Source of the DNA: Paramacrobiotus metropolitanus
Taxonomy: Eukaryota > Tardigrada > Eutardigrada > Parachela > Macrobiotidae
Length of the DNA: 64,000 nucleotides
Direction of reading: 5' to 3'
Assembly: GCF_019649055.1 (NCBI RefSeq)
Contig: NW_026570276.1
Span: 496,001 to 560,000, forward strand
Made by a program: the position numbers and the translations under genes. The notes beneath the pieces are model-generated. The model did not search any database and was not told the DNA's origin. It was given only the letters and a program-made list of their open reading frames with translations. Positions 10,629-49,274 of this stretch are shown here, one piece after another (positions within the stretch are counted from its first letter, which is position 1; each line of letters begins with the position of its first letter).

Positions 10629-12292
10629 ATGTTGCACCTCATCGAGATGGATTGTCTCCGCGCGGCTTCCCAGCCTTCTCTTGATGACAGCCAATGCAGT
10701 CAGCCGTTCGAACAACAATCCAGAAGCGTACCAGATTTGCCGGGGCTCCTCCGGCCTCAGCTACTGCATCTGCGTTCCCACACGCTTCCCGACATGACAA
10801 CCGCCCTGCAGCGGCACTTTCCCTACACATTGGGCGCACCGTTCGCCAGCGGAGAGAATTTAACGATTCCCCTTATTAATTTCGAGGAGGAGTCCTTGCT
10901 GCAGGAGCAGCCATTAGCCACTGCTACCGAGCCCAAAGAGTGTCCGGTTTGCAAGCTTCGTCCGCCAAAGACACCTAGTCCTTTGATATTTTTCACAGTT
11001 TTTGTGCTATGCGTTCACCTCGCCGACACATTTATTCACTGGTAAACCGACTTGGCAGTGATGATAAAAACTACCAGATCCTCGAAAATTGCCTGTTGCG
11101 CTTTGCAGGGTGCTGGTTGTAACGTTCTGTGCAGTGAAGCAATTTACCTGGTTTGGACTAACGGCGACCATTTTACTATTCTCTCATTTTCTGGTAATCT
11201 GCTTCAATTATTTGTGGACAAGGGCGGCTTTCACGGCAGTACTGCAGGATGATAGTTCCATAGATGGGAAACCGGTGATACGGTCAAGAAAGCCGGCTCC
11301 GCTTCGGCGATGTGCTCAGCTCTCGTTGCGGATTATTGCTCAATCACCTTTAGCGGTCATTATGAAAAGGCACGAGCAGCGTGTATAATACTTAGTGATT
11401 GATTTCAAAATAATACTTTTCTGGTAAAAAACAGTTACAAAAATCCGTGTTAAGATTTACCTTGAATTCCAGACATTGGGAGTATATGCGCTTAACCACC
11501 CATCGGCACGGTTCTCCCTCCTCACATGACAAATGCTTCCAGTGGCATTACTTGAATGCCTACCTCTCCCAGTTCCACACTCTTTCATCACACACGGAAT
11601 CCCTGCCACAAATATTATTGCATTTATACATCCTGGCGGAAACCTATCGCAATACCCAACCGTTCCAGTACCAGACTGTCCAGTTCTGTCAGGTCCTGTC
11701 CATCGGAACGTCATTACTCCGCACTTTATGCAGTATTCTCAGCGTCTGCGTTTATCAGAAAGAGCGCGTTAATGGACTGCGCTACTTCACCGGACATCTC
11801 TTGGTGGCGGGAGTTCGCCTCGTGACCTTAGCTCTGTTCCTCATCCAGTTCAGTCCGCACAGTCTAATCTTTGTTGGAGTGCATCTGCTCCTTATAATCG
11901 CTATTTGCTCACTGCGACCTCGGATTTCCTGGCTCCAGAAACGGAAGCCGAGAGCCAACTTGTTGCCAGTTTTCAATCCTCTGCAGCTAACGTTATCTCG
12001 CCAGACAAAGTTCCTGGAAAGGCTGCTGCATTTTTTTTCCATGCCTGTTATTGGCACTTTTGACTACCTACAAGAAAACGAGGATCGGGTCTTTTCAAAG
12101 TTGTATTTTTTGTTAGTGTACGTTGAGAATGTTGCCTGGATAACGCTGTGGATGGCGCTGGTTGATGTGGATTATACGAAGCATATTTTCGGCTATCGTT
12201 TGTTGGTGGCATTTATCGTCTGTGTTGGTTTTGTATTAGGAATTTTGATACTCGATATTTATAGATCAGAGAATGATAGTGACACAATCTGA
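10629..12292 (+). CDS. XK-related (XKR) multi-pass membrane protein
   Basis: Member of the XK/XKR family, some of which scramble phospholipids at the plasma membrane; the function here is not shown. Exon 1 is 10629-11041 (start ATG 10629; a later ATG at 10794 is possible). Exon 2 starts at 11109 after a 67-bp GT-AG intron that joins in phase at a Trp codon. Exon 3 starts about 11460 and ends in TGA at 12290-12292. Evidence: a cysteine motif CPVCKLRPP before the first membrane segment (LIFFTVFVLCV), a second around 11170-11210, and in exon 3 the family hallmark ESLPQILLHLYIL, where XKR proteins have E-S-x-P-Q-L-x-L-Q-x-Y, followed by S-L-L-R-T and several long hydrophobic segments. Total about 500 aa, within family range. 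The exon 2/3 junction (about 11385-11460) is not settled: the best acceptor, TTCCAG before ACATTGG, does not match the obvious donor phase. Confidence 0.78.
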
Positions 12293-24686: not shown

Positions 24687-25258
24687 TGTCGTGTATAAGC
24701 GTTCACGCCGGTTAGGGCTCCATGAACAATCTTTACTCTTCCACGCCTGTAATGCTCAGTCAGTAGGCACTCGTACTCTCAAACTGTAACAGATAAACTA
24801 CGGTGGAAACGACGGACGACTCGGGAACACGGGAACTCAGGAATCCCTAACGAAGAGTCCAACTACAATCTCCGGTCGCAGTTTCTACGAGGATCAACAA
24901 GAGCTAGGACGATGGTGTCACGAGCAAACCTGTATACTAAGCGATAATCCGGGAACGACTATGCACTTCCGTAGGAACAAGTATTGCTGCCTCTTTATTA
25001 ATACACTTCGTAGTCCACAACACAAGGAAATCGTAATTAGAAAGCAGTCTCAGAAGTAAATCTCAGACTACTGATACCGATATTAGAAGTGACAGGAACT
25101 TATATAGACTCTGCGCTATGACATCACTTACACCACTAGTAAAAGAGAACAGCAAATCACAGCATTGATTGACTAGATTATCCGTATGTTGCAGGTGGAA
25201 GGCGGACAGTCAGCATCCGTACGTACATCCCGGCGTGTGATCCTACTCCCACACGTCA
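24687..25258 (-). repeat. 3' LTR of the giant element (572 bp)
   Basis: Plus-strand ends TGTCGTG...CACGTCA. Compared by eye base for base with 48703-49274, it shows one substitution and no indel. On the minus strand it reads TGACGTGTGG...ACACGACA, so TG...CA holds in both directions. The minus-strand sequence just before it (25259-25266, CGTGGGGG) is a short candidate polypurine tract. Confidence 0.97.
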
Positions 25259-30729: not shown

Positions 30730-31147
30730 TTTACGGCGTTTTTGCATCTCCGGCGGCTGTTAAATAATTTGTTGGTAGCTGGGCCGGTTGTTTGTATATC
30801 CCAGTTGTGTCTTAACTTTGGATCTGAGTTTAATTTTACCAATTTTGCTCATATAATTTCTGATTATCCTGGTCGTACAGATCTCATCCTTTGAGTTTAA
30901 CATGAATTTTTATCAAGAGAATGTAATTGCCGGTCGGTAATAATGTTGCCGGAATCAATTAAAAGAATTTTAGCCGTAGACCTTGTGCATTACTAGGCTG
31001 TAGTACATTAATAAGAAAATTAACCGTACTTTGTAATCGGTACAAATTTAATTCCCAAAGATACAACACATCCGCATAAATCAGCGTCGGCAAAGACCAA
31101 AAAAAGATAAAAAGAAATTTTATAAGTTGCAAAATAGGTCTTAACGT
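30730..31147. other. spacer before the tRNA-like array
   Basis: AT-rich, no ORF of note; probably the 3' end of the antisense gene (TAA 30727-30729) followed by spacer. Confidence 0.45.
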
Positions 31148-33442
31148 GGAGTTGAACTTGAGAACTAGCTGCACGGCTACATCCTGTTCTTGCCACTACG
31201 CTAGCGTGACTACGCACATTTCCAACGATTATCTAGACACCGTAAGCGGCATGCGTATATATGATATGACTACATTAAAGCGTTGAGCAATTTATACGTT
31301 GCTTTTCCAGTTGAGACACCAAGTTCAGTATCTCTTTGTGGCATAATTTCGTTCCACAATTATGCAAAAATATAGAACCGAAAAAGAGAGCTCTGAACAT
31401 GCAACATGCAACCTGAGATTATCAAAGAGGTAGTAATTGTAATGAATGGCCATCATTCCAGCCACTGTACTACGAAGTCATTCGATTACAAGTGAAGACA
31501 CGAGCGTGCGCACTGTCACTTCAAGAATATACGCATAGATGCGCCGCTCTTCCAATTTAATTCTGCAAGTCCAGAAACTATTGTCAGTGCTTTTCAAAGC
31601 GCTTATAAAAATATAAAACAAGAAAAAGTAAATTTCAGAAAGTGCAAATAACTGTGAAGGACTTGAACCCGAAACCTTTTAGTTTCCCCGTTGCAGTAGT
31701 TCAACAGTGCTGAGCGCTACACTACGACATTTTACGACGGTAACTTTTTAAATTGCTCAGCCGAAATGATCGCGAAATTATCGTTGTCAATGCCAACACG
31801 TTATACTACATTATCATAAAAATATAAATCCAAAAAAGGAAGGTTTTCAAAATTCGCAATTTTAACTTTAGGGATTTGAACTCTAGACCTTGAAGCAGTT
31901 GGAGAACGAGAATTCCCGGCCGAGCCACTATGCTACGAGGTGCCGCTCTACAAAGCCCCGTTGACTTTGACACCGGAAGCGCCATGTCGTGTATAATATG
32001 TGATAGCTCATCTGGTGGCTAAATTCAGCGTTCAGGTACAAAAATACTGCGAGAACAAAAAATTTTGTAAGTACAATTTCAAAAGAGTTTCGATTAAACG
32101 GTGTGGACTAGCTCCTTCTTGTGGCTCTGCAAGTGAGCCACTATACTACAAATGAACCCGAGACTTCAGTAAGTAATTTCCTTGATTATTTGCTCGGCCA
32201 CCACACTACGAAATCATCCGACAAAAGACAACGAAACTGCCGTACTGCAATGTGAGGTTTATGAGGCGACTTCGTTCAAAAAATCACAAAACTCAAACCG
32301 CCGGTGCGAATATTTTAGGCAGTAGACCAGTAAAGATATAAAAACGAAAAAGTAAGTTTTCCAAAATTGCAAGTCAACTCTAAGGGGTTTCGAACCCGAA
32401 GCCTTCCAGTTAACCATTGTCGTAGTTCAACAGGTCAAAGCACTATACTACGGCGTTCTACGATGTTGATTTTGAATTCTTCTAACGGAAATGACCGTAA
32501 AATTGTATTCATCAGAGAGAACGCATTTGTCAGCATTAATGTAAAAATATGAGACCCCAAAAAGAAAATTCTCGAAATACGCAATTTAATTTGAGAGACT
32601 TGAACTCTAGACCTTGACACAGCTGATTAGCGTGGATTGTCGGTCTAACCACTACACCGCGGATTATTCTATGCCGTAAATAGTTTAAACGAGACACCGG
32701 AAGCGCCATGCATTATAACAATATAGCCGTTCAAGATTGTAAGGTCCGATACACCCGCTCATCCATTGTAATGATAATATTCAAACCGGCAACACCAGCA
32801 CATTGATATATATTAGACTACAATAATATAAAATCGAAAAAGAAGGTGTGGCAAAATGTGCATTAATTATGGGGGTTTGAACCCAAAGCCTTAGATTGAC
32901 CGGGTGGTTGCAGAAATTGGCTACTCAACCACTACACTACGAAATCTTTCAACGAAAACGACATAAACAAGACGCTAAAGATTGTACATTTGTGCGCCGC
33001 TCATTGATGCTTACAATAAAATTAGCACCACCGAAGAGAATACGCAAGGCATAACCGCTTGAAAAACATAAACCCAAAAAAAGAAGGTTTATGAAAATGC
33101 TTTTACAATTGTTGTAGGTTAGAACCCAGGACCTAGCAGAGAGTCGCCTAGTATTGTTCTCCTGTCTAGTCTACTACGCCACACAAGGCATCGACAAAAA
33201 CTATTGTCATGTAATATCGTACAGTTAACACCGCTAGAGTTTCACTTTTGTAGTGATCGTTCTCAGTGTAGAATAACCCATAATTTACAATATGTGACGC
33301 AGCGTACAAAAATGTAAAAACATAAATAATAAAAGCAAAAAAAAGAAAGTATATGTACAAAATTACATTTTCATATGGACTAGAACCTCCGACCAGCACG
33401 AAGCCAGTAACGGGAGCCACTACTATACCAGCGGGGTCGCTC
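31148..33442 (-). repeat. array of about eleven tRNA-like units with pol III boxes
   Basis: On the minus strand, units of 65-80 bp at about 31148-31210, 31410-31480, 31659-31728, 31871-31948, 32085-32158, 32152-32215, 32383-32458, 32593-32670, 32871-32946, 33115-33188 and 33375-33442. Each starts with a box A-like string (for example TAGCGTAGTGGC, TAGCATAGTGGC, GTAGTGTAGTGGTT) and most end in a box B (GAGTTCAAATCC, GGGTTCGAAACCC, GGGTTCAAACCCC). The box A to box B gap (~44 nt) is as in tRNAs with a long variable arm. T-arm pairing is partial and acceptor stems do not pair, so these are not ordinary tRNA genes. A shared downstream block follows each (TTGC..ATTTTG.AAA, a T5-T6 run, then TTTATATTTTTA). 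The bodies differ far more than the boxes. Confidence 0.75.
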
Positions 33443-34738
33443 TACACAAAAATAGAATTAACAGCAGTGCCAAAGACGTGCTGCTGCTGTTAATGAGAAA
33501 TGCGCAACGTGCGTATCGACCACCTGCCCGAGTGAGGGACTTCGTGAATAGCACTGGGGAAAAACTAACGTAAACAAGAGATTGTGTGGTTGCAGGCTAC
33601 AGCGTCCGAAATTTGCAACAAAACAGCGGAGACAGCAACTACATGAGTTTCATTGAATTCACAGTCCGCATAGTAACAAGACATTTGAACGAACCGAAAA
33701 ACAAAACGCAGGAGCCATAGTGTTGTTCACACAGAAAACTGAACAGCAAGAACTCGCAGGAAAGGACTAAACTAACAGAAACCATACGATTAGTCAGGAG
33801 ATAAAATTCTAAAAGAGACCCGAAAAATGTGAGATCGTAAGCGAACTTGCAGCCAGACTGCAACTGAACAACGAGACTAGTACGTGCGACAAACCAAGGC
33901 AGAAGTATCCAACTAATTACCATAAGATGAAGGAACATAAGACAGAATTCCGCTCAAAGACTCCATTGAGGCGATCCAGCACTACGGATTCCTCAGCGGA
34001 AGCTTGGAAACAGCCTCCCTAACAGCAATCTTTTTCCGTTCGAAGCGATGTTGGGCTTCAGTGCGTAGGGCCATCTTCTGCGCGACCGACGCAGTCCACC
34101 CGAAACACGGTTTCGAGCGCCTGTTTGGCTTTTCCTTCGTCTCGCGAGCAGGGGAGTCATCTTGTTAGAATGGTATCACGCGCAGGTATTCAACAAGATA
34201 CACCGTGACTTTATGTAAGGATAATGTAGAATTAAAGTGGATAAAAAGATGATAACGAGAAAAACTAGCTGGGATACATTCAGGATACTAGCGGAACCTG
34301 CAACCGCCCACTTATGACAGTGACAAATTGTCGGACTTCGCTGGCTGCGAAGTTAACGCTAACGGAATCGCCACCTTCGGTAGGGAGCACAAAGTAATTC
34401 TCACCGTTTTACCACTAAACCCAGATTTTCGGTGGTTTTGAATTCGATTTCCGCTATGACGCGATGATATTAAAAGCCAGAAGAATTACGAGACGGCATC
34501 AGCCAAATTATAATGCCATTGGGTTACTACATTTGCACCCAAAGGAAAGCCCTTAACAATCAGGCTTTATCACAACTTAACAAGAGGACACCATCCTATT
34601 AAAAGCAAGATTTCAACATCAAAATTTACCGTGCAAGGAGAATCATCAGCACGTAAAATGACAACATTTAGAAAACCTGTACAAAGTCTATGCACGTCGC
34701 CGTTCACAAAATACTCCAACGGCCGATGGTGGAAGACA
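33443..34738. other. 1.3 kb with no firm gene
   Basis: A minus-strand open stretch at about 33990-34180 (contains KPCFGWTASVAQKMALRTEA) has protein-like composition but no start codon. It could be an exon or a relic. Otherwise nothing recognised. Confidence 0.35.
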
Positions 34739-35377: not shown

Positions 35378-35870
35378 TGTCAAAACACAACTGTGCAACT
35401 GTGCAGATATAAGTTTTACATCAACAAATGAAGATTTAGAATTTAAAAACTGAGAGAGTGTAAAGGAAGTCGAAATGACAAGTTTGTGCAGGAAAACTGC
35501 TGACACACACTGCAGACAGACCGGAAATGGCTGTGCAGCCCAAACTGCCACTGCCCTAACTTTTAATCGACATACAGGCGGTTGCCACCACTACTACTGC
35601 ACATGTTAGGACGTGAAAATAGGAGTTTTCTGGTTGATTCTAAATGCGTTACGGCTTTCAACAATATAAACGATATTTCTATAAAAGTTAGCTTTATTTT
35701 GGTTCAGGATTAAACCTTCCGTCATTCTTCATCAATTCTATTGATCAGCAAGCAGATGTAGCTGCCACAGAAGCAACGGTAAGCTGACTGCACAAAACAG
35801 TGTAACGTCGTAAAACTGTGCCAAAAGGTTGTAAACTAAAAGAAAAGCTGTACCAGAATTTTAAAACTAG

Positions 35871-35988
35871 GAAGACCATTTCAGCCAGCAAAATAACAGT
35901 ATTTAAAACCGAAAGAATGTGGCACTGAGAACTAAGGAAGACCATTTCAGCCAGCAAAATAACAGTATTTAAAAACCGAAAGAATGGC
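35871..35988. repeat. direct repeat, two copies, 63-bp period
   Basis: The phrase GGAAGACCATTTCAGCC plus about 35 more bases occurs at about 35871 and 35934 with almost no change. Lies between cargo ORFs a and b. Confidence 0.85.
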
Positions 35989-36047
35989 AACTGAGAGATC
36001 GTACCACGTAGAAACAACTTATTACCAGGGATTTACAGCGGTCTTTT

Positions 36048-37683: not shown

Positions 37684-38481
37684 TTAACCGGAAGTTTTCA
37701 CTGGCTGTGCCGGGCCGATTTCCATTGCATTACAGGTAATTGGCGGGGTGTTACTGGCCAGTGGCTCAACTGATTCAGATTGGCCCCCTCCCGGCTGAGA
37801 TACATTCAGGACAGCCGGGTTTCTATTATTCGTAACCATACGCTTTTTAATATCAAGCGACGGGTCTCTTTTGCGTTTTTTGTCGTTGTTCTCATTAATA
37901 AATCTCTCCACAGGTTTCACCACACGCCCAGAGCGGGTCTTCAAAAGCGGTACCTCTTCCAATTGTTTATCCAGATATTCCGCATACTCAGCATCAAGGC
38001 GCGACGATGCTGAGTCAACGAACGGAACCACCGGCGGCGGCGCGGGCGCCTCAACAATTTCATCGGGACATTCCCTTCTCCACGCAATCCAGTAATTTAG
38101 GTAACTGTTCATCTTGTAGGATAGTATCAACATCGCGGAAGTTGTAGGGTTTCAAACGGCTAACGTGGGCTGTGTCAGTTTGACATTCCCGCGCCGATTA
38201 CTCTTCACAACATAATGCACCGGTCCTGACGGGCGAACAATTTCCCATCCTGCAGTCCAACGGGGCATAAGCGGATTTTGCCCACTTTTCGGTGAAGGAC
38301 GTAAACCAGCACCTGATCCCCGGTTTATACATAACTGCGATATTATATTCATAACAATTTTGTCTTTTAGTTTATGCCGGAACTCCTCGGCGTTTACCAA
38401 ATCCAAAGCTCTCACCAAGGCCGCGCTGCATTTGCTGTACGAAAACGTGAGCGGGGACGACAAAGTCTTCTTCAAAGGCAA
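37684..38481 (-). pseudogene. pol: integrase C-terminal part and tail of pol
   Basis: Two successive frames (38152-38481 and 37684-38133). The first holds a GPxxY-like C-terminal domain of integrase (PRWTAGWEIVRPSGPVHYVV); the second an acidic linker and a typical basic end, LKTRSGRVVKPVERF. Frame changes near 38135-38150 and within 38290-38340. Confidence 0.6.
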
Positions 38482-39868
38482 AAGTTGTCTACAGGTAATC
38501 GCATCTCGGTGCCGTGCATCATGAAAAATGGTGTGCGGCCCGTTCGTTCCACAACTTTACTGTTAAAGGCAGCGCAAAGTGCCGGGAGGAAAATATCCCA
38601 GTCTTTGTTGCTCATTAACATATTTCGCCAATGCCTTCTTAATTTCTCCGACGCTTCTCGACAAACCATTCCCCCTGCTGGTGTCCTGACGCCGTGGTGC
38701 GTGAGCAACACCCGCAAGAGCAAGAAGCTCCCGAACATTTCTGACATGAAATTGCTGCCACGATCTGACGTAATGTGAATAGGCATCCGAAGACCGTTAA
38801 TATCCTTTAAAAAGAATAATGCCAATGTAGCGGCATCATTTCTTTCTACAGCTTCTGCCACGATATATTTACTCCCCAATCGACAGCTATAATTATGTTT
38901 TATTTCCAGATTCCGTCGTTGGAAGAGCCGGAGCGACATCGATTGCCCACTAAACGTGGAGGAACTGTCGGGTTCGACTGCAAAGCCCCAGCCGGAGCTG
39001 TAGCGGGGACATTCTGAGCAAGACATGCCGCACAGGATGCACAGTAGTTCCTGACTGACTCAAACATCCGTGAATAGAAATTATACTTATACATCCGTTT
39101 GTAAGTAGCCAAGACTCCCAAATGTGCTGCTAAAGGTGAGTCGTGATTATCCTGAAGAAATTGAAGGCGCCAATGCACAGGCACGTACATACAGTAATAG
39201 ATTTTCCGGTTTAATTCAAACTTGTAATAAACAACTCCCTGTTTAACAACAAACTTATTAAGATGTAATTGCTCATGCTCTGACATTTTTTCCTTTTTAT
39301 TTTCTAGGAGCAACCGCCATCGGACAATCCGCGCGTCCCGAGACTGCTCTTCAGCCCAGTAGGAGGCTTTATCATCTGTAATCAACTTCTGCACTTTATC
39401 TGCGTCAAAGGCTTTCATGTCTTCCTCCGAAATGACTTTCACTTCGGCCGACATCATCTCAAAGCGGATATCCGCATAGTCTCTTTCCAAAACCGCAAAA
39501 CAGCATTCAATCATCGCTGCATCACCGGCAAAAGGGTAAGTCTGCCGATAATCAAACTCAATATCCGAATCGTCAGAGTCGGGTTCCGGTTGTTCTCCAG
39601 GGTTTCTGCTTAAAGCGTCAGCGATAACATTCTCTTTGCCCGGGATATGGACCGGTTTAGTATTAAACTGCTGTATGTATAGTGCCCAGCGCCCAAGGCG
39701 GCCAGCGGCATCGCGCATATTATTAAGGAAAACCAGAGCCTGATGATCGGTCTGGACTTCAAACTGGTAGTCAGACAGATAATGTTTCCACTTCTTTAAG
39801 GCGCAAATGACTGCATAAGCTTCAAGTTCTGTAGGGAAGTACAACCTTTTCTGGGTCTCTGTTAACAC
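38472..39868 (-). pseudogene. pol: pol: RNase H end and integrase
   Basis: Frame 39868-38900 carries RNase H (ELEAYAV with the Glu, TDHQAL with the Asp) and the integrase H2C2 module (VPVHWRLQFL, HDSPLAAHLG, CASCAAC). The core is split. Its first catalytic Asp lies in frames that change twice between about 38945 and 38885. From there frame 39026-38472 has the second Asp (ITSDRGSNF) and the expected Glu region (REASEKL), then TGRTPFFMMHG. The upstream RNase H Asp (VDAST) is at about 39960, in a frame ended by a stop at 39869-39871. Confidence 0.8.
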
Positions 39869-40183
39869 GACTTAAATATAGGCCTCCAGTTCGTTGCCAC
39901 GTCCGTCGGGTGATCGAGGGCACTGCATAAGCACTGCACCCACAGCGATAGTGCTGGCATCCACAACAACTCGCGATAAAGCCTCTGGATCATAACGGGC
40001 CAAACCGGCGCCGTCACTAAGCTTCCTTCAACTGTTCGACTGCGCGACACTGATCAACTCCCCACTCAAAGGTAACTTTTTTCGAAATCAACTTTTGAAG
40101 CGGTTCTGCAATTTCTTGAAAGTTCTTAATAAATTGACGATAATATCCTACCATGCCCAAAAGCGCAAAATGTCTTTTTATCT

Positions 40184-40615
40184 TTATAGGGCCAATTCCT
40201 TAACCGCCTGGATCTTCTCTGGGTCTGTGCTGATACCAAACTGGTCTACAGTGTGTCCCAAAAATGTTATTGAATTAACAAATAATTCAGTTTTTTCAGG
40301 ATTAATGGTCCAGCCGCATTCCTGGAGCCTCAGAAAAAGCTCCTGCAAATCCCGCATATGATCGGCTAAATTTTTGCTAAAGACGATAATGTCGTCTATG
40401 AAAACAAGGACGTTTCTCCATTTCATGTTGGCAAGCGTGAAGTCCATTGCACGCTGAAAAGCGGAAGGCGCATCCTTTAGACCAAAAGGTAAGACTTTGT
40501 ATTGAAAGGTGAACTCTTCTCCGACCATCGTAGTTTTACAACGGTCTTCCGGCTTAATCTTTATCTGCCAAAACCCCGACTTAAGATCTATTTTACTAAA
40601 CACTGCTACTGGCAT
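40184..40615 (-). pseudogene. pol: pol: reverse transcriptase core, upstream part deleted
   Basis: Holds the first catalytic Asp (FSKIDLKSGFWQI), LPFGLKDAPSAFQ and the FIDD box (VLVFIDDIIVFSK), then LGHTVDQFGI. It starts abruptly: the upstream ORF ends at AWGSPIWR and a stop, and only about ten codons separate it from this block, where related RTs have about 45-50, including the R-F-x-V-D-Y-R-x-L-N motif. So roughly 40 codons of the RT fingers are missing. Downstream, thumb and connection continue in another frame to about 40025. Confidence 0.85.
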
Positions 40616-40619
40616 TTAT

Positions 40620-43600
40620 CTAACGCCAAATAGGACTTCCCCACGCCGAATTAGTCGGTTCTATGATGCCATCCTTAATCATTTCTTGTGTTTTTGCTTG
40701 GAGCCACTTCCTATCCTCAAACGATGTGCGATACGGAGGAGTTCGAACCGGCAAACTCGTTCCCGTGTCTACCGAGTGCTCATAAATGGTACAACATCCG
40801 ACTGGACGAGTTTTCGTTGGTAGAACTGACTTTGCTTGATAGAAGATCTGTTTAAGCTCTTCTTTGCTTGGGCAAATCTCACCGACTTTAATTTTGGCAA
40901 ACGTTTCTTCCGTTTCAGGATCGACGGCACAGGGAGCGGAAGACTGCGACTGCATCGCGACACATTCATTAATTTTGTTCGGTACCGGAACACCTTTTTC
41001 ATCGCGTGAAACGCCGCAAGAGTCACCGTGACAGCTTTCCTGAAATTCTGGAGAGTCCATCTGATACACAGCATCAACTAGTGCTACTTCACCAAGGTTA
41101 GTTTCTTCGTTTAAAACCAGTGGTTTGTCGGAAACGTTGACGACACAGACCCGACAGTTGCCATATTCGTTAAGCGTCAAAACGCCATCCAATAAGACAG
41201 CGTTTTTATTTGATTCTGGTATTTTTCCTTCGTAGAGAAATGGCTGAGTATATAAATACTCATCCTGGAATTCCATAAATTGTTCGTCCGACATGGCTGT
41301 TGTCGCCCGAATAATTCCCTGCGAATGGGGCTGAATTATCACCGGTGAAGCCGGAAAGAGCTCCATTTTGAAACAATCAATTGGACCAGGTTCAGGCTCG
41401 AAACGGTAAATATCCTGTTCTGCTAAATTTACCTCAGCCTGTGCTTGAGCTTGTTTCAGATGGGCGTCTCTATATGCCAGTTCGATGACATCCTTTGTGT
41501 ACACGCATGCCGGGATATCTGTGGATTCACGGACATCCTGAGACCGTTTCGGTAAGTCTTTAGCCGTCGGTTGTTGTAAGACCGGTGCCGGCTGCACTGT
41601 CTCGGCGGACATCTGGCTTGCCGCATCTCTTTCCGCATATTCGCGTTTAATTCTACGGCTATAACTGGACTTTTTGCGCCGAGGAGAATTCCTTGCCGAA
41701 CCTTCCGATAACTGTTCAAAACTTCCCACGGTAGGTTGCACTGAATTAACACTTGTCGATTCTCTTTCCGCTTTCCGTTTTTGTATCTCGTTCCAGATTG
41801 CCCACTGTTCGTTTATATTTACATCGGTGGGGGTATCATATGTTGCCCTGACAGCCGGAGGAAGCAAGTCTGACATTTGGTCACTAATCAACTTATGCTC
41901 CTGCGGTGAGTTGCCAATCAATTGAGAGTTAACTTCCCTTTGCTTCTCCGCCTGTTTATCTTTGTAGGAGACCGGACAAGGACCAATATCAATGGGCCGC
42001 ATCTCATCAGCAGGAATAAAGCTACCGTTGTCAAATTCACCTGCCGGTGCCGGATTATCCTGTGAAAAGGTAACCTTACGTTTCCCAGTTGCTTTCTGCG
42101 CGTGTAATTGTTCCTTCCGTTTAATTAATTCAAGGTGCCGCCGATCGTTTACCGAATTACGACATACATCGCAGTTCTTTTCGTAACGTTCAATTTCGAT
42201 AATGCAATCCGGCCAGTAAAAGACCTTAATTAGATATGGATACAACTTTTCGCACCGGCCGTATACCTGTTTATGCACCAAAATGTCGTGGAAGCAAGCT
42301 ATTAATTTTTGCCGCCATTGGTGTGGCACAAAAATCCTCGGGCATGCACCAGAGTGATCGGGCACTCTGCACAGAATTCCTTCACAAATTATCATCCGAT
42401 TAATTTCATATTTGGTATAATTCGTATTTGCATGCGCCGGGTTCTTGTACATTTTGTACCACATTCTGCTATCGACGCACATTTGTTGAGTTTCTCTCCA
42501 GAACTGTGGATCACGAAACATTTTTTCTGTAGGAAACAAGCCTTTATCCTGCGGTCTATCCATCGGTGACATCCACCTTTTCAACTCTGGATTCCGTGCC
42601 ATGAAGGACGGATAATCGTGAACTTCATCAACATCTCTGCGGTCACGTTCAACAGGTATAACGTTAAGTAATTTGTTGTCCATACTAAGACATTCCACTG
42701 ATTTAGATGATTTTTCCAAAACACCTAAATACAGATATTTTGCTGCAGGATGCTGCTGTAGGACTGCGTCCAAAGATGAAATCTGAATGGGAAGTTGTAA
42801 GGGGTCGTCACCCCCACGAACTTGACGTGAGCCAGAATTGGGCACGGGACTGACCGATACGGAAGACGAGGTACTCGAACTGCATGCCGGCGACGGGTGA
42901 CAGATTTTTTCTTGTTTAATTGGCGGCTGGGGAGACACTTGTTCTCTCCCCCGCGAACTTGACTGCATATTATGTACAATTATTTCGCCGCCTCCCCCAC
43001 GAACTTGACTTGGTTCTGGGATTTTTTCCGTCTTAATTTCTTTTTTAATTACAGGTTTGACCGGTTCGTCAGCGACGGAAGCCGCTTTCGGAAGATATTG
43101 ACGAATCATTTCCTGAACAACTCCTCGTACAAACTCAACATCCCGCTGATCGGATCCCGTTTTAAGTGGTGCTGCCGGCACGGGCACAATTTCTTTAATT
43201 TCCACTTTTACAGGAACATCCGGGACTTTTATCGCCGGTGACGATTGAACTGGACGAGGCCACGACTGTTTTGCTTTTTGTAAATGTAAAATGCAAATTT
43301 CTGGATCAGCCTTTGCTAGGATTAAATGTGCAGATTCGTATGGCACAAACTTTGCCTCTTTAGCGACACCAATTCGCTCAGTCAGCATCAGTGCTGGGAT
43401 CAGAGGAGACGGCTTAACTCCCGGGGGAATTAAAGGGTCGAAGTCGTGTGAACGGATAACATCCGACATGAGGTGAGTTTCGCGACGAAGGAATGCCGGG
43501 GCATTGGGCCGTCTACGCGAGAGACGCCAAGTCATCGTGTTCATGTCAAGGACAAACGGTTTTGTAGCTAAAAAGTCTAAACCTAAAACAACGTGGTCCC

Positions 43601-44138
43601 TATCAAAAGTGGAACTCACCAGAACTGCATGCTCAAAAGCCATCCCGAATTCATGGATGGTGACCACCACCGACAATGGCTCAATCAGCTGTCTTCCCTG
43701 ATAAGCTGTATGGACGACCCTACCTTTAGTATGATCAGGACAGCGGTGAATATTTAATTTCAAATCATTAGCCATCTTTAATGACATAACGGAAATGCTA
43801 GAACCGGTATCTAACATTGTCTTCACTTTCTGATAATTTATATCGATTACAGAATACCTGGCTTGTGCATCCAACGTCGGCAACAAGCATACATGGTCTG
43901 CTAACGGATACTGCGAGAAATCTTGGACTTCCATTTTATGGCACTGAGGCGTCGGCGACGACAGACCTGCTGGTAAGTCTAACTCCATCATATTAATTTG
44001 CTGCTGAGGGTTGTTATATTTTGCCAATAATTCTGCGGACGGTTCATACTGACGAGGAAGTACAAACTGATTTGTACAACCTGCTGCCGGATGTAGCCCA
44101 TGGCAGCGGAAACAAATCTCAACTCCGCGGTTTGTTCG
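40620..44138 (-). CDS. pol: pol N-terminal half: CCHC knuckle, protease, extra H2C2, RT start
   Basis: The frame is open from just below the gag stop (44139-44141). Order: a CCHC-like knuckle with spacing C-x2-C-x3-H-x4-C (CFRCHGLHPAAGC, about 44080-44120); aspartic protease DTGSS (about 43800) with a VLGLDFLA second half; Pro/Lys-rich linkers containing a three-times-used phrase (S)xVRGGG/D; an integrase-like H2C2 module in the wrong place (about 42230-42500, see the 37225-37609 entry); a long acidic/basic linker of about 400 residues; and the RT entrance (PVRTPPYRTSFEDRKWLQ, GIIEPTNSAWGSP). About 1,170 residues. The ORF as a single frame from 44027 is 1,135 codons. RT itself is cut short by the deletion next to 40620. 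Confidence 0.85.
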   Translation of the reverse strand, partial: RTNRGVEICFRCHGLHPAAGCTNQFVLPRQYEPSAELLAKYNNPQQQINMMELDLPAGLSSPTPQCHKMEVQDFSQYPLADHVCLLPTLDAQARYSVIDINYQKVKTMLDTGSSISVMSLKMANDLKLNIHRCPDHTKGRVVHTAYQGRQLIEPLSVVVTIHEFGMAFEHAVLVSSTFDRDHVVLGLDFLATKPFVLDMNTMTWRLSRRRPNAPAFLRRETHLMSDVIRSHDFDPLIPPGVKPSPLIPALMLTERIGVAKEAKFVPYESAHLILAKADPEICILHLQKAKQSWPRPVQSSPAIKVPDVPVKVEIKEIVPVPAAPLKTGSDQRDVEFVRGVVQEMIRQYLPKAASVADEPVKPVIKKEIKTEKIPEPSQVRGGGGEIIVHNMQSSSRGREQVSPQPPIKQEKICHPSPACSSSTSSSVSVSPVPNSGSRQVRGGDDPLQLPIQISSLDAVLQQHPAAKYLYLGVLEKSSKSVECLSMDNKLLNVIPVERDRRDVDEVHDYPSFMARNPELKRWMSPMDRPQDKGLFPTEKMFRDPQFWRETQQMCVDSRMWYKMYKNPAHANTNYTKYEINRMIICEGILCRVPDHSGACPRIFVPHQWRQKLIACFHDILVHKQVYGRCEKLYPYLIKVFYWPDCIIEIERYEKNCDVCRNSVNDRRHLELIKRKEQLHAQKATGKRKVTFSQDNPAPAGEFDNGSFIPADEMRPIDIGPCPVSYKDKQAEKQREVNSQLIGNSPQEHKLISDQMSDLLPPAVRATYDTPTDVNINEQWAIWNEIQKRKAERESTSVNSVQPTVGSFEQLSEGSARNSPRRKKSSYSRRIKREYAERDAASQMSAETVQPAPVLQQPTAKDLPKRSQDVRESTDIPACVYTKDVIELAYRDAHLKQAQAQAEVNLAEQDIYRFEPEPGPIDCFKMELFPASPVIIQPHSQGIIRATTAMSDEQFMEFQDEYLYTQPFLYEGKIPESNKNAVLLDGVLTLNEYGNCRVCVVNVSDKPLVLNEETNLGEVALVDAVYQMDSPEFQESCHGDSCGVSRDEKGVPVPNKINECVAMQSQSSAPCAVDPETEETFAKIKVGEICPSKEELKQIFYQAKSVLPTKTRPVGCCTIYEHSVDTGTSLPVRTPPYRTSFEDRKWLQAKTQEMIKDGIIEPTNSAWGSPIWR

Positions 44139-45062
44139 TTATTTATCTTTTAAAATGTTACGCTCATCAAACGGAGGTTGATTACCAGCCTGCTGTTGCG
44201 GGCGATAATTCTGATTTTGATACTGCTGACGATTATTATTGTTATTATTACCACCACGTTGGTTATTGTTTCCACGATAATTATTATTTGGGCGGTAATT
44301 CCCACGATTATAACCGCCGTTATTATTATTATTTACAGGACCATCCTGCTGATACTGCGGATCGAAATTCTGGACCGGCTGCTGAAATTGCGGCTGCATA
44401 ACCGGCATCATCGGATTCATCATCTGTACAGGGACTGGCATAGCAGCTTGCATCGGAATGGGCTGCTGGAACGTCTGCGCAAATTGCACTGGATGCTGCT
44501 CGACAAATTGCGGTTGCCGGTATACCGGGACCGGGACAAACTGCGGCTGGGGTACATTCAGGACGGGCTGCGCTGGAGCCGCAGGATTTTGTTGCTGTGG
44601 AATTACCGTTTCAGTGTATGAACGGGAATATCCTCCGCGGGTATTCCCATAATTTCCACGACCTCCCCGATTCGAGTAATAATTACCTCTTTGAGACGAG
44701 CCACCACGGCCGCCTCGGTTTTCGTAATTCGAGTTATTTCCAGCACTCCTTGGCTCTGTCGGTATATTCTTTTGAGTGGGTTCAGGTGTTTTCTTATCTT
44801 TATTCATCCGCTTCCACAATTTTTCACAATCTTGCAATTTCTTTTCGAATTCTGAGTAATTCTTTGGTGATGCGTTGTAGATCTCGCGGAACCATGCCGG
44901 CCGGTGATCCTGAACACCCTCCAAGAGCGCTTCAACCTGCTCTTCATCTGAGATTCTTAACTCCTCAAACCATGGGAGGAAACTATCCAGGTAAGCACGG
45001 ACCGGCTCGTAAAAATCCAGTTTGCGATTATTCATTTTTCTGCGCATATCCGCTTTAGACAA
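44139..45062 (-). CDS. gag: gag, C-terminal part (capsid end, RGG/Asn-rich tail)
   Basis: Continues the capsid of the upstream gag ORF after a single-base frame change near 45040-45060: KADMRRKMNNRKLD, then ...YLDSFLPWFEELRI...DEEQVEALLEG..., a usual retrotransposon Gag pattern. The tail is Arg-Gly rich (NRGGRGGSSQRGN), then Gln/Pro/Met-rich, then Asn-rich. Ends in TAA at 44139-44141. The pol frame that follows is the same frame, so gag and pol are separated by one stop codon rather than a -1 shift. Suppression of that stop, or its being a mutation, cannot be told apart. Confidence 0.75.
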   Translation of the reverse strand: MSKADMRRKMNNRKLDFYEPVRAYLDSFLPWFEELRISDEEQVEALLEGVQDHRPAWFREIYNASPKNYSEFEKKLQDCEKLWKRMNKDKKTPEPTQKNIPTEPRSAGNNSNYENRGGRGGSSQRGNYYSNRGGRGNYGNTRGGYSRSYTETVIPQQQNPAAPAQPVLNVPQPQFVPVPVYRQPQFVEQHPVQFAQTFQQPIPMQAAMPVPVQMMNPMMPVMQPQFQQPVQNFDPQYQQDGPVNNNNNGGYNRGNYRPNNNYRGNNNQRGGNNNNNNRQQYQNQNYRPQQQAGNQPPFDERNILKDK

Positions 45063-47731
45063 CGAGCCATTAAAATGCTAATTGCCGGTTTAAAGTAATC
45101 GGACCATGACTTTCCTTTATTGTCTTTCCAGAATTTTTCGAACCATTGGAAGGAGGCTCCGGTGAAAGCGCCGGTTACTCTACGACAAGTAACCTCATCA
45201 TTCCAATTGTTCGTGGTTCGACACTGCTCCACATTCATGAGCCACTTCTGAATTTTTTCTGGATGGGAATCATCGAAGGTAAAGAGTTTCATACTGCCTT
45301 CGGCTTTATCGTTTCCTTTTTCCGCGAGCTTCGTGATTAATTCAACAACGCATTCTTGTGTAAGTGCTGCCCTGTCCGATATTTGCGTCTGCTTAATTAA
45401 CCATTCTTCCAGATTTAAATTTCTGGACGTGGATTCGTTACTGGCCGTGCTACTAGGACGACGAAGTTCGTCATCAAGCGGCAAATCGTCCATTAATTCA
45501 TTCTCAATGTCAGAACCGTCTCTGTTTTCAGATCTACGCGCATGACGGCTAACATCATCGGACTGCCTTTTGAATATCTCTTGACGCAAGTCTGTTGACC
45601 GGTTTTTCTTTTGATTGGGCAGCACCGTTTCCTTGGGAACCTGACCTTCGGAAGACGAGCGCGGCATAGCATGGGCTTCTGAAAATTCGACCCGTGATTC
45701 CTGTCTGGGTTTCCGGAGAATACTGGCCGGATTAGTTACGGGAGCTGAAGGCTGTTCATTAGACGCCGAAAAATTCTGGGGATCAAACAGGGGAAATGAG
45801 GTGGACCGTAATACGTCTCCTGTCGCTACCGGGGCTTCCTTTTGAAACTGTCTTTGACCTCCTCCAAGAGCAACACCAGAATTTCTGAACTGGAGAAGCT
45901 CGCTGCACGCTTGTTTAAATTCATCCTCCAATTTGGTAAGTTGATCTTGCTTTTCATACCACTCATCTCGCAACTGCTTGTTTTCTTCGTATAGTCGATT
46001 ACAATTTTGATCCTTCTCGAAGGCGACGGCTTGTGCTTCCTTCTTCGCCTGCATCGCTTTTTCACAATTTACACATTTTTTATCATGTTTAATATCGCTC
46101 AGCTCCTTCTGGGCTTTGCGATTATTTTCCTTTTCCGTATCCAATAATCCTTCAAGCCGTTCAATTTCTTTTTGTGCTGCTTCATCATTTTCCTTAGGAA
46201 TATGCATCGGGCCAACAGTAGACAGTTTGTTAAGCTGTACATTAGCTTTTGTTAGATCCCGCTGGAGGGTATCCTCTCTGTCTTTAGCGCGCTTCTTTTC
46301 ATCATCTAAATCCTTAGCAAGCTTTTGAGACAGATTTTGCGCATCCGCTAAGTTTTTATTGGTCAACTTGTGCGCGTCTTTTTCCGCATTCAGGTCCCGC
46401 TGGGCTTTCGATAATTTCTGGTCTAAATCTGCAACTTGCTTCGCCGTATCAGGGAGTGTTTGGGCTTTAAAGCCGTCGATAGTAGTTCTCGCTGCCGACA
46501 GCTCTCTCTGTGCTTCCTCTAATTGTTTTTCCAAATGCCGGTTTGCATCCTTTAATCCATCACGCTCATCTTTCATAGCATTAAGAGCATTTTGTGCGTT
46601 TCTACCAGCATCTCTTGACCGAGACAAATTATCAGCCGCAATACGCAATTCGTTTGTCAGGCGATCATTTTCGGTTTGTTCATTTTCAAATTTAATACGC
46701 ATTTCGTTGTAATCAGATTGAAATTTTAATTTCAGGTTACGTTCTGCATCCACACGAGCGTCCAGGGACATAGAGTTCCCCATTTCGTCTACTTTTGATT
46801 TCGTAGTTGCAATCCATGTCCGCAGACCCTGGAGCAGCACGGGCATCGTCTTCCGGGCGACTAATCCCACATCTTGATCGGTCTGTGTAAGGGCTAGGAG
46901 CTCATCAACTTCCTTTGCCTTAGCCAGAAATTCCTCATCAGGTTGTTCGAAGTCTTTTTCCGAAACAAACGCATGTAATTTCAATTGTGTCGGGTGAAAA
47001 GACATCCCGCCCCCCATGATACTTTTCTTTCTTGCAGATGCTTCCGGAGCTATATCCGCATTTTCACCAAACGCCATGTGAATGGGCGTATCATCCTCTG
47101 ATCGGCTATCCTCATCCATATCGAAATCTGGAAGAGGTTGTTCCTTGTTAAAGAGGCTTTCCTCTGAAAGTGGCTCTACGAGCTTAAGCGGTTCTGTATT
47201 TGGTTCACTACGAGTAATTTGTTCTGTATTCTCGGTAGTTTTCGATTTTGCCGCCACCGCTCTCTTGGGTCGATCGTCAGAAACGGACTCCTTTGGTTTT
47301 ACACCAACTTTTGCAGCTGCTTCAAGCGCAATGGTGGGCGCTTTTCTACGATCTTCCATATTTTTCTTGTATTCAGGTAACCACTTATAAGCCTTTTTAA
47401 CTGCTTCATTAAACTGTTCATCAGTGATATCCAGGTAGGCTTCTGGAATACACCGTTCAGTCTCATACCATCCATTGTAGTAAAAGGGTGCCCTTTTGTT
47501 TGGGTCCACCGATTTCCCCAACTCCTGGAAATCTACCCACGGCTTACCACAATAAGCTCTGGAACCTTTGGGTGGTTCCAGATTGAGTGCGAAATACATC
47601 AAACCTAACGGTATTTCGTCGGGTTTGAATTTAAACCTGGTTTGTGTCGCCGCGCCTTCATATGGACCTTGTATAACCTTATCTTCTGGAACTTGGCTTA
47701 GCGCCTTGTTCTTATTTTCTGGGTTGGACAT
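45032..47731 (-). CDS. gag: gag, N-terminal 899 residues with long coiled coil
   Basis: ATG 47731 (MSNPENKNKALSQ). The N-terminal part has a W-rich region (KPWVDFQELGKSV, FYYNGWYE) with no family assigned. About residues 290-640 form a near-continuous heptad-type coiled coil (LRIAADNLSRSRD, LEKQLEEAQRELSAA, ADLDQKLSKAQRDL). After a Ser/Arg-rich linker, about residues 800-899 match a retrotransposon capsid: HPEKIQKWLMNVEQ and GASFQWFEKFWKD. Gag proteins of Ty3/gypsy elements are usually 250-500 residues; this one, with its continuation in the next frame, reaches about 1,200. Self-assembly through the coiled coil is a fair inference. Confidence 0.8.
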   Translation of the reverse strand: MSNPENKNKALSQVPEDKVIQGPYEGAATQTRFKFKPDEIPLGLMYFALNLEPPKGSRAYCGKPWVDFQELGKSVDPNKRAPFYYNGWYETERCIPEAYLDITDEQFNEAVKKAYKWLPEYKKNMEDRRKAPTIALEAAAKVGVKPKESVSDDRPKRAVAAKSKTTENTEQITRSEPNTEPLKLVEPLSEESLFNKEQPLPDFDMDEDSRSEDDTPIHMAFGENADIAPEASARKKSIMGGGMSFHPTQLKLHAFVSEKDFEQPDEEFLAKAKEVDELLALTQTDQDVGLVARKTMPVLLQGLRTWIATTKSKVDEMGNSMSLDARVDAERNLKLKFQSDYNEMRIKFENEQTENDRLTNELRIAADNLSRSRDAGRNAQNALNAMKDERDGLKDANRHLEKQLEEAQRELSAARTTIDGFKAQTLPDTAKQVADLDQKLSKAQRDLNAEKDAHKLTNKNLADAQNLSQKLAKDLDDEKKRAKDREDTLQRDLTKANVQLNKLSTVGPMHIPKENDEAAQKEIERLEGLLDTEKENNRKAQKELSDIKHDKKCVNCEKAMQAKKEAQAVAFEKDQNCNRLYEENKQLRDEWYEKQDQLTKLEDEFKQACSELLQFRNSGVALGGGQRQFQKEAPVATGDVLRSTSFPLFDPQNFSASNEQPSAPVTNPASILRKPRQESRVEFSEAHAMPRSSSEGQVPKETVLPNQKKNRSTDLRQEIFKRQSDDVSRHARRSENRDGSDIENELMDDLPLDDELRRPSSTASNESTSRNLNLEEWLIKQTQISDRAALTQECVVELITKLAEKGNDKAEGSMKLFTFDDSHPEKIQKWLMNVEQCRTTNNWNDEVTCRRVTGAFTGASFQWFEKFWKDNKGKSWSDYFKPAISILMARCLKRICAEK

Positions 47732-48685
47732 TCTTACGGTAAGTACAGTAACTATTGTGCTACAGCTTACCGTAACTTGGAAAGTTACAATTATGCAACT
47801 CTATTTCGCTGGACAGTCCTCCTTTAAGGTTTGAACTGCTCAGTGAAAGATTCAATCACAGCCGACCTTTGCGGTTCGGCTGCAAAACTAACTCTTAAAA
47901 TTCTTTGCTGCACTTTGTGTGCTGCCGTAATTTTAACTCACAGGTCAATCCTACGGTACATACAGTAACTATTGTGCTACTGTTTTCCCGTAAAGTTCTG
48001 ATATTGCGATTGTGCAATTCAGTTTCCACTAGACAGTCCTCCTTTAAGGTTTGAACCGTTTAGTAGAAAATTAATTACAGCCAACCTTTGCGGTTTGACT
48101 GAAAAACTAGATGCTAAAATTACCTTGCTGCACTTTGCGTGCTGCTGTAATTTTAACTTGCAGGTCAATCACCGTTTGCCGGTGTTTACCTTTTCACGAT
48201 CAACTATCTCTAGCTGCTGATTTTGGCTACCGCTTGCGGCTTGCCTTTATCAGACTGCTAGAGATCGTTATCTCACTTGGCCACTGACAATGGCTCGGTG
48301 CTCACTATCTAATTGATCTGCAGGCCAGACACACTGACGCAACAGTTCACAGTTTATTCGCCGCGGTTACTGCTTTGCGCAGACAACCCGGAAATTACCC
48401 ACAAAACACCACTCAATTCACACAGTCGACCTTTAAGGTTTCGACTGTTTTCCCTACGGTCCGATTAAATTAAATTTAAATTTAATTGGCGAGGAAGCTC
48501 ACCAGTGAGGAAGCTCACGATTGCGAGGAAGCTCGCCAAAATAAATTAACTAGGCCAGGTCAGGAACGCTGACCTCCTTCGGCGCACCTTTGCGGTTCGA
48601 CGCCTTTCCTATACGGACCACTTTTACTGTAAATTACCACCAAACTTTCCACCAATAATTTTCTGTTACATCGGGAAAATTAAAA
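47732..48685 (-). other. 5' leader with a 215-bp duplication and repeated stem-loops
   Basis: Between the PBS and gag. 47734-47949 and 47950-48172 are diverged direct repeats (shared: ACAGTAACTATTGTGCTAC, CCTCCTTTAAGGTTTGAAC, ending GGTCAATC). Within and beyond them lie six stem-loops, most with loop core CCTTTGCGG or CCTTTAAGG: 47813-47838, 47859-47882, 48033-48057, 48078-48101, 48423-48447, 48581-48604. No long ORF. Confidence 0.7.
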
Positions 48686-48702
48686 GACACCGGTGGGCGC
48701 CA
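48686..48702 (-). other. primer binding site of the giant element
   Basis: Directly after the 5' LTR, the minus strand reads TGGCGCCCACCGGTGTC. TGG fits the CCA end of a tRNA, and TGGCGCCCA plus most of the following bases matches the 3' end expected of a metazoan tRNA-Lys. The tRNA identity is from memory; the position and TGG are seen. Confidence 0.75.
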
Positions 48703-49274
48703 TGTCGTGTATAAGCGTTCACGCCGGTTAGGGCTCCATGAACAATCTTTACTCTTCCACGCCTGTAATGCTCAGTCAGTAAGCACTCGTACTCTCAAAC
48801 TGTAACAGATAAACTACGGTGGAAACGACGGACGACTCGGGAACACGGGAACTCAGGAATCCCTAACGAAGAGTCCAACTACAATCTCCGGTCGCAGTTT
48901 CTACGAGGATCAACAAGAGCTAGGACGATGGTGTCACGAGCAAACCTGTATACTAAGCGATAATCCGGGAACGACTATGCACTTCCGTAGGAACAAGTAT
49001 TGCTGCCTCTTTATTAATACACTTCGTAGTCCACAACACAAGGAAATCGTAATTAGAAAGCAGTCTCAGAAGTAAATCTCAGACTACTGATACCGATATT
49101 AGAAGTGACAGGAACTTATATAGACTCTGCGCTATGACATCACTTACACCACTAGTAAAAGAGAACAGCAAATCACAGCATTGATTGACTAGATTATCCG
49201 TATGTTGCAGGTGGAAGGCGGACAGTCAGCATCCGTACGTACATCCCGGCGTGTGATCCTACTCCCACACGTCA
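48703..49274 (-). repeat. 5' LTR of the giant element (572 bp)
   Basis: Partner of 24687-25258, one mismatch. Followed at 49275-49278 by AGTC, the target duplication. Confidence 0.97.

What the first reader, a model, noticed from the sequence alone, without database searches (positions are those of the whole stretch)
31148..33442. Tandem array of about eleven tRNA-like, pol III-type units inside the retroelement
Seen: box A and box B strings on the minus strand every 210-280 bp, with a shared T-run and TTTATATTTTTA block after each, while bodies between differ strongly. T-arms pair partly; acceptor stems do not. Known: this is the promoter layout of tRNA genes and tRNA-derived SINE heads. Inferred: the element carries an array of small pol III transcripts, or decayed tRNA genes, or stacked SINE heads. 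Conserved boxes with free bodies favour transcription being kept. I know of no LTR element described with such an array.
Basis: partly seen in the sequence, partly recalled or inferred. Interest (0 to 1): 0.92.

Follow-up and report, generated by a model that had tools for sequence, protein, structure and literature searches.

The report
Pol III gene array in retrotransposon
A 24.6-kb jumping element in what is probably an animal genome carries about ten small tRNA-like gene units in a row, each with its own start and stop signals, and relatives of this array lie in at least 55 places in the genome, which suggests that the element makes a set of its own small RNAs.

Summary
The array is real. 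On the minus strand of the window, the element's sense strand, 33444-31109 holds eleven box A sites, ten paired with a box B. A T5-8 run lies 28-34 nt past box B in nine of eleven units. It sits in a 24.6-kb Ty3/Gypsy-type element with 571/572-identical LTRs, a 4-bp target duplication and a tRNA-Lys primer site. Searches give 55 array loci; 13 of 13 elements that could be paired from 40 listed LTR matches hold one. Host-tRNA box matrices find 169 A-B pairs in sense and 3 in antisense over 29 array loci. Boxes and T-runs are best conserved, bodies next, spacers least, in two clades. Early T4 runs between the boxes are depleted, 4 against 28. A sibling family without detected DNA similarity has the same layout. 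Standard searches find no tRNA; no SINE or miRNA-hairpin signal was seen. Best reading: a set of distinct pol III small-RNA genes of about 106-120 nt. Transcription and function are untested. The nearest precedent is the pol III miRNA cluster of bovine leukemia virus.

The parts
24687..25258 (-). 3' LTR (TG...CA), followed by target duplication GACT
   Evidence: 571/572 identical to the other LTR; GACT on both outer sides; same boundaries in the 30 LTR loci printed
48703..49274 (-). 5' LTR
48690..48702 (-). primer-binding site TGGCGCCCACCGG, 13 nt complementary to the 3' end (with CCA) of a host tRNA-Lys(CTT) gene
   Evidence: match read by eye
38475..47800 (-). gag/protease/RT/RNase H/integrase region, in interrupted frames in this copy (described only)
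   Evidence: Pfam: aspartic protease, then RNase H, H2C2, rve (rve below cut-off); RT itself gave no Pfam match in these frames, its start was judged by eye
33337..33444 (-). unit 1 (body class 4): A 33430, B 33387, T8 33344-33337
   Evidence: a 21-nt pattern over its lead and box A has 55 matches in the genome at up to 2 mismatches
33076..33195 (-). unit 2 (class 12): A 33181, B 33126, T7
32837..32953 (-). unit 3 (class 5): A 32939, B 32883, T5
32559..32673 (-). unit 4 (class 8): A 32659, B 32606, T5
32347..32464 (-). unit 5 (class 7): A 32450, B 32396, T5
32057..32222 (-). units 6a/6b fused: A 32208 with a truncated B at 32158, then A 32148 with B 32115 (class 1), shared T6 at 32062
31832..31949 (-). 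unit 7 (class 8): A 31935, B 31882, T6
31623..31738 (-). unit 8 (class 7): A 31724, B 31669, T5
31381..31486 (-). unit 9: A 31472, degenerate B near 31424, T5
31109..31217 (-). unit 10 (class 3): A 31203, B 31158, T5
31969..31996 (-). 28-nt copy of the LTR end plus a PBS-like stretch, 61 nt upstream of box A of unit 7; weaker copies at 32685-32718 and 31235-31261

Best explanation
The stretch is an array of separate RNA polymerase III type-2 (tRNA-type) genes carried in sense, downstream of the integrase region of a giant Ty3/Gypsy-type LTR element. TFIIIC would bind box A and box B of each unit; pol III would start a little upstream of box A (about 14 nt assumed here) and stop at the T5-8 run some 33 nt past box B, giving about eight to ten different RNAs of about 106-120 nt. 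The RNAs most likely serve a trans-acting task of the element, such as counter-defence or sequestering host RNA-binding or small-RNA factors, as some retroviral and herpesviral pol III RNAs are thought to do (recalled). Shown: anatomy, constraint on boxes, T-runs and bodies, spread with the element. Inferred: transcription (about 0.85) and an RNA-level task (about 0.65). Which task is open.
For: 29 array loci: 223 A-B pairs sense, 1 antisense, 1.8 in shuffles (matrix trained on the arrays). Independent host-tRNA matrices at threshold 15: 169 sense, 3 antisense, and 9 in 268,908 strand-bases of 38 non-array loci. In 208 units the first T5 run lies at a median of 33 nt after box B (quartiles 32, 34), none inside A..B; T4 from 15 nt before A to the end of B: 7 against 69; between the boxes only: 4 against 28, while spacer has 140 against 116. 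Mean pairwise identity, 8 close / 16 more distant copies: A .923/.944, B .927/.911, T .937/.948, between boxes .881/.881, tail .821/.865, spacer .792/.804. Body classes and order largely kept. 55 array loci; 13 of 13 paired elements hold one. A sibling family without detected DNA similarity has three A-B units in a 1-kb probe and a 98% copy in a second element.
Against: No RNA data. Predicted RNAs show no unusual fold (class mean z from -1.3 to 0.7 in the 9 of 13 classes with five or more members) and little covariation. Unit 9 lacks a good box B and units 6a/6b are fused. Downstream flank is as well kept as unit tails in the close clade (.831 against .821). Units were chosen by box score in the reference copy, which favours the boxes somewhat, with all eleven hand-listed units, still gives A .924, B .939, between .915, spacer .790. 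DNA binding alone could explain boxes. Only 27 of 150 listed RT matches have an array 5-11 kb downstream; most others are presumably other families and were not probed.
Confidence: 0.7

Rival explanations
1. DNA-level role: the A/B boxes bind TFIIIC and serve as an insulator, boundary or open-chromatin platform, or as an integration decoy; RNA is a by-product.
For: A and B boxes are, with the T-runs, the best-kept parts; TFIIIC sites act as boundaries in other systems (recalled; only listings seen).
Against: T5 runs stand at a fixed distance and T4 runs are depleted between the boxes but not in spacers, which a binding site does not need; bodies are better kept than spacers in both clades.
Confidence: 0.17
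2. Relic: an old tRNA or SINE cluster caught by the element and multiplied by unequal exchange, now decaying without a task.
For: No intact tRNA; fused and degenerate units exist; the 730-bp higher-order period shows block duplication.
Against: Boxes and T-runs keep 91-95% mean pairwise identity where spacers keep 79-80%; the array is in 13 of 13 paired elements and in a diverged sibling family.
Confidence: 0.07
3. Replication module: sense pol III RNAs prime or assist plus-strand synthesis, and LTR-end/PBS-like copies upstream of some units serve as internal primer sites in a 24-kb genome.
For: 28-nt LTR-end/PBS-like motif, mostly 58-64 nt upstream of a box A, scoring above the shuffled maximum in 28 of 29 arrays; identity .96 against .76-.86 in its flanks; the RNAs would be in sense.
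Against: Its PBS part lacks one base against host tRNA-Lys(TTT) and differs from the element's own site (by eye); the two further copies in the window array are kept at .744 and .897 only, and 4-6% of array windows are as well kept.
Confidence: 0.06

Closest known systems
Bovine leukemia virus pol III miRNA cluster (PMC4267658, passages read)
   Same: Several compact, separately transcribed type-2 pol III genes with A-like and B-like boxes and terminators inside a retroelement, in the 3' untranslated part of gag-pol
   Different: There five pre-miRNA hairpins with a B box downstream of the hairpin; here ten or eleven tRNA-type units with both boxes inside the predicted RNA, no hairpin signal, in a Ty3/Gypsy-type element of an unidentified host
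Foamy virus pol III miRNAs (PMC7693620, one abstract passage)
   Same: Retroelement-borne pol III small RNAs
   Different: Some have double-hairpin, dumbbell-shaped precursors
TRIMp3: Cassandra, Helenus, Ajax (PMC10886601, abstract and sections 13 and 19)
   Same: LTR elements that carry tRNA- or 5S-like pol III promoters
   Different: There the promoter sits in the LTRs of short non-autonomous elements; here it is an internal array in a large element with its own gag-pol region
Giant Gypsy elements Burro and Ogre (PMC6431247, passages read)
   Same: LTR elements of up to 25-30 kb; Burro has a very long polyprotein
   Different: In the main text of that review 'tRNA' and 'pol III' occur 0 times
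Murine gammaherpesvirus 68 tRNA-like/miRNA genes (recalled; PMC8223928 seen in a search listing only)
   Same: A cluster of tRNA-like pol III genes in a parasite genome (recalled)
   Different: DNA virus; tRNA-like fold joined to hairpins (recalled)

Membership tests
Pol III type-2 gene | box A and box B at tRNA-like spacing | tested here: met
   A-B distance mostly 43-56 nt (host tRNAs 42-45); host-tRNA matrices find them
Pol III type-2 gene | T-run terminator after box B and rarely before | tested here: met
Pol III type-2 gene | TFIIIC/pol III occupancy and a transcript | not testable with these tools
   no expression or binding data
tRNA gene | scored as a tRNA | tested here: not met
   0 by ARAGORN defaults in the window and in 29 array loci; no RF00005 match to E 10 in 30900-33700
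tRNA-derived SINE | dispersed copies elsewhere | tested here: not met
   81 strict A-B matches form 50 clusters: 37 have RT or LTR in the capped lists, nine more an LTR-end/primer-site match by eye, the other four are arrays
tRNA-derived SINE | target duplications around single units | not tested
   no dedicated test was run
TRIMp3 (Helenus, Ajax, Cassandra) | pol III promoter inside the LTR of a short non-autonomous element | tested here: not met
   array is internal, 5.9 kb from the 3' LTR; element 24.6 kb with pol domains
Retroviral pol III miRNA cluster | separate pol III units inside the element | tested here: met
   by sequence signals only
Retroviral pol III miRNA cluster | stable pre-miRNA hairpins | tested here: not met
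   class mean fold z from -0.38 to 0.67 in eight classes and -1.31 in class 1 with five members
Ty3/Gypsy LTR retrotransposon | LTRs, target duplication, tRNA primer site, integrase after RNase H | tested here: met
   no RT tree was made

The most novel reading that the evidence does not exclude
The array is a replication and counter-defence module: the element makes a fixed set of distinct sense pol III RNAs, and copies of its own LTR-end/primer-site junction stand about 60 nt upstream of some of these genes, so that tRNA priming or RNA-primed plus-strand starts can occur inside a genome too long to copy in one piece.
Probability: 0.07. Interest if true: 0.95.

Novelty: new variant of a known kind. 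Interest (0 to 1): 0.82.

Why it matters
Clusters of pol III small-RNA genes are known in a few retroviruses and herpesviruses. A family-wide array of about ten units in giant Ty3/Gypsy-type elements would widen that strategy to retrotransposons, give dozens of natural replicates in one genome in which promoters, bodies and terminators can be compared, and make it directly testable what such RNAs do for an LTR element. It also warns annotators that such units look like tRNA or SINE heads but behave as neither.

Tried and rejected
tRNA genes: ARAGORN and Rfam gave none at standard settings. A very lax ARAGORN run (70% score, introns to 60) returned 759 calls on both strands of 29 loci and is meaningless. 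The tRNA-family search of the genome scored 63 of 6550 first-look candidates and listed 60, so it says nothing on weak ones.

miRNA-like hairpins: rejected on fold z-scores. Covariation: two-sided changes in classes 8 (17 cells), 3 (17) and 12 (2) of the eight classes tested, each resting on few pairs; too little to claim a structure.

SINE or host targets: a 21-nt core of body class 7 gives 65 matches at up to 3 mismatches against 4 for the reversed control; two, on C6, are by eye not near an array.

U6-type upstream element: four U6 upstream regions do not carry the -60 motif.

Organism: not identified. A nematode-type TTR family gave no match, with no positive control; a paper search by assembly size gave nothing usable. 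An XK-related match points to an animal (that the family is animal is recalled). A search with the gag-like frame scored 7994 candidates and found only the window's own protein.

Coding sequence: 9 of 29 array loci have a sense frame of 100-180 residues overlapping the array, at differing places by eye, so no shared frame. Frames beside the array gave no Pfam match.

A C9 probe lay just upstream of the array and held no A-B pair; one search then placed the array further on.

Not in print: searches of the held open-access library showed, in the rows listed (up to 20 of 3-87 papers each), no LTR element with an internal pol III array; subscription papers are not covered.

Full report
Setting. 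The window is part of a 169.8-Mb genome in 533 contigs. An XK-related match at 11414-12292 points to an animal host (recalled). The species was not identified.

The element. Two LTRs of 572 bp at 24687-25258 and 48703-49274 are 571/572 identical, run TG...CA and are flanked by the duplication GACT. The element lies on the minus strand and spans 24,588 bp. After the 5' LTR comes TGGCGCCCACCGG, complementary over 13 nt to the 3' end, with CCA, of a host tRNA-Lys(CTT) gene. Pfam finds an aspartic protease, RNase H and integrase domains (rve below its cut-off) in interrupted frames; RT gave no match there and its start was judged by eye. Some sibling elements have open frames of over 3,000 residues around the RT. 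The LTR search scored 40 of 182 candidates, so family size is a lower bound.

The array. Box A sites on the minus strand start at 33430, 33181, 32939, 32659, 32450, 32208, 32148, 31935, 31724, 31472 and 31203; box B sites at 33387, 33126, 32883, 32606, 32396, 32158 (truncated), 32115, 31882, 31669, 31424 (degenerate) and 31158. T5-8 runs begin 28-34 nt past box B in nine of eleven; units 6a and 6b are fused and share one run. Segments recur at about 724-733 bp, so blocks of three units were duplicated.

More than chance. A matrix refined on the arrays finds 223 A-B pairs in sense, 1 in antisense and 1.8 in shuffles over 29 array loci. As that matrix was trained on the arrays, I repeated the scan with matrices from 20 host tRNA genes. 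At thresholds 12, 15 and 18: 200, 169 and 151 sense; 9, 3 and 0 antisense; 22, 9 and 5 in 38 non-array loci (268,908 strand-bases). In the whole window at 15: 9 on minus, 7 in the array, 0 on plus.

Terminators. In 208 units (score 19 or more) the first T5 run lies at a median of 33 nt after box B, quartiles 32 and 34, and none between 15 nt before box A and the end of box B; T4 runs there number 7 against 69 in shuffles. The boxes themselves hold no T4, so I recounted between the boxes alone: 4 against 27.9, while a spacer stretch has 140 against 116.2. A weaker T4 is common 10-20 nt past box B.

Constraint. With 8 close copies, identity of seven to the window copy is 92.4% in box A, 93.9% in box B, 91.5% between them, 79.0% in spacers, 69.8% in the upstream and 84.6% in the downstream flank, all eleven hand-listed units counted. 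Mean pairwise identity, 8 close / 16 more distant copies: A .923/.944, B .927/.911, T .937/.948, between boxes .881/.881, lead .841/.857, tail .821/.865, block after the T-run .833/.806, spacer .792/.804, upstream flank .666/.780, downstream flank .831/.795. There the units were chosen by box score in the reference copy, which favours the boxes somewhat. In the close clade the downstream flank is as well kept as the unit tails, which tells against strong constraint on tails; boxes, T-runs and between-box bodies stand out in both clades.

Identity of units. The bodies of 208 units fall into 13 classes, and their order along the array is largely kept: 4, then 12/11/10, 5, 8, 7, 1 or 2, 8, 7, 3, with losses and duplications. 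A 21-nt pattern over the lead and box A of unit 1 matches 55 places at up to 2 mismatches, control 1.

Spread. 81 exact matches to a strict A-B pattern (control 0) form 50 clusters; with the array similarity search (40 of 58 candidates scored) this makes 55 array loci. Of the 50, 28 have an RT match 2-14 kb upstream in the capped list of 150, 24 of them at 7.4-8.6 kb; 13 have neither an RT nor a 3' LTR in the capped lists. For nine of those 13 I find by eye an LTR-end/primer-site match 15-17 kb upstream on the same strand (the list was cut); the other four are arrays. LTR matches 15-50 kb apart pair into 13 elements, two of them longer than 31 kb, and each contains an array. In the other direction, 27 of 150 listed RT matches have an array 5-11 kb downstream; several other long-frame elements, such as the one on C76 at 464689, were not probed. 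LTRs of subfamilies are about 89-90% alike while their arrays are mostly 65-75% alike.

Sibling family. Two elements with RT frames over 3,200 residues, on C13 and C9, had no unit-1 match. A 1-kb probe of the C13 element has no blastn match to four array loci at E 1e-3, yet holds three sense A-B pairs 167-170 bp apart, none in antisense, with host-tRNA scores of 16.0, 28.8 and 28.0; its tails resemble the array tails by eye. A first probe of the C9 element lay just upstream and held no pair; a 98% identical copy of the C13 array stretch follows there, although 430 bp just upstream are only 75% alike. That suggests exchange of arrays between elements. Both have the same LTR-end/primer-site 19-mer.

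LTR-end/primer-site copies in spacers. A 28-nt stretch with the last 12 nt of the LTR and a PBS-like sequence lies mostly 58-64 nt upstream of a box A, before class 8 in most arrays and class 3 in others; its score exceeds the shuffled maximum in 28 of 29 arrays and equals it in one. Identity is .958 and .960 against .76-.86 around it, but two further copies in the window array are kept at .744 and .897, and 4-6% of array windows are as well kept. In the window there are two matches at up to 3 mismatches to its first 17 nt, both exact: this one and the real primer site. By eye its PBS part resembles the complement of host tRNA-Lys(TTT) less one base rather than the element's own tRNA-Lys(CTT) site. 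A weak form sits 57 nt upstream of one sibling unit (1 of 300 shuffles as good). I cannot explain it; an inherited leader fragment, an upstream promoter element and an internal primer site are all open.

What it is not. No tRNA call at standard settings; no miRNA-like fold; no shared open frame; no dispersed SINE in the patterns searched.

Reading. The simplest account of sense-oriented, fixed-distance A box, B box and T-run signals, kept with their bodies while spacers drift, over 24 aligned copies and present in a diverged sibling family, is a set of pol III genes of the element. That they are transcribed is inferred; that the RNAs act in trans is a further inference resting on body conservation. 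The nearest published case is the BLV cluster of five compact pol III pre-miRNA genes (PMC4267658, passages); TRIMp3 elements carry a pol III promoter in the LTR instead (PMC10886601, abstract and two sections).

Noticed in passing
31969-31996 (-), and the LTR end/primer site at 48686-48714 (-): A 28-nt copy of the LTR end plus a PBS-like stretch sits about 60 nt upstream of a box A in most arrays and is better kept than its flanks.
   Followed up: partly
G000:C50:194970, 195020, 195073 and C86:252291, 252346: The LTR-end/primer-site 19-mer recurs in tandem every 50-55 bp at two other places in the genome.
   Followed up: no
L105 (C13), L106 (C9) and C9:742855-743372: Two sibling elements share a 98% identical array stretch although 430 bp just upstream are 75% alike, which suggests exchange of arrays.
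   Followed up: partly
40620-44135 (-): An integrase-type H2C2 zinc-binding match, below the Pfam cut-off, lies between the protease and the start of RT in this frame (RT start by eye).
   Followed up: no
11414-12292 (+): XK-related protein match, probably a host gene exon.
   Followed up: no
1146-3377 (+) and 56907-58604 (-): Other retroelements: an LTR-type RT/RNase H/integrase stretch and an RT with zf-RVT.
   Followed up: no
35865-35996: Two copies of a 66-bp tandem repeat inside the element, upstream of the array.
   Followed up: no
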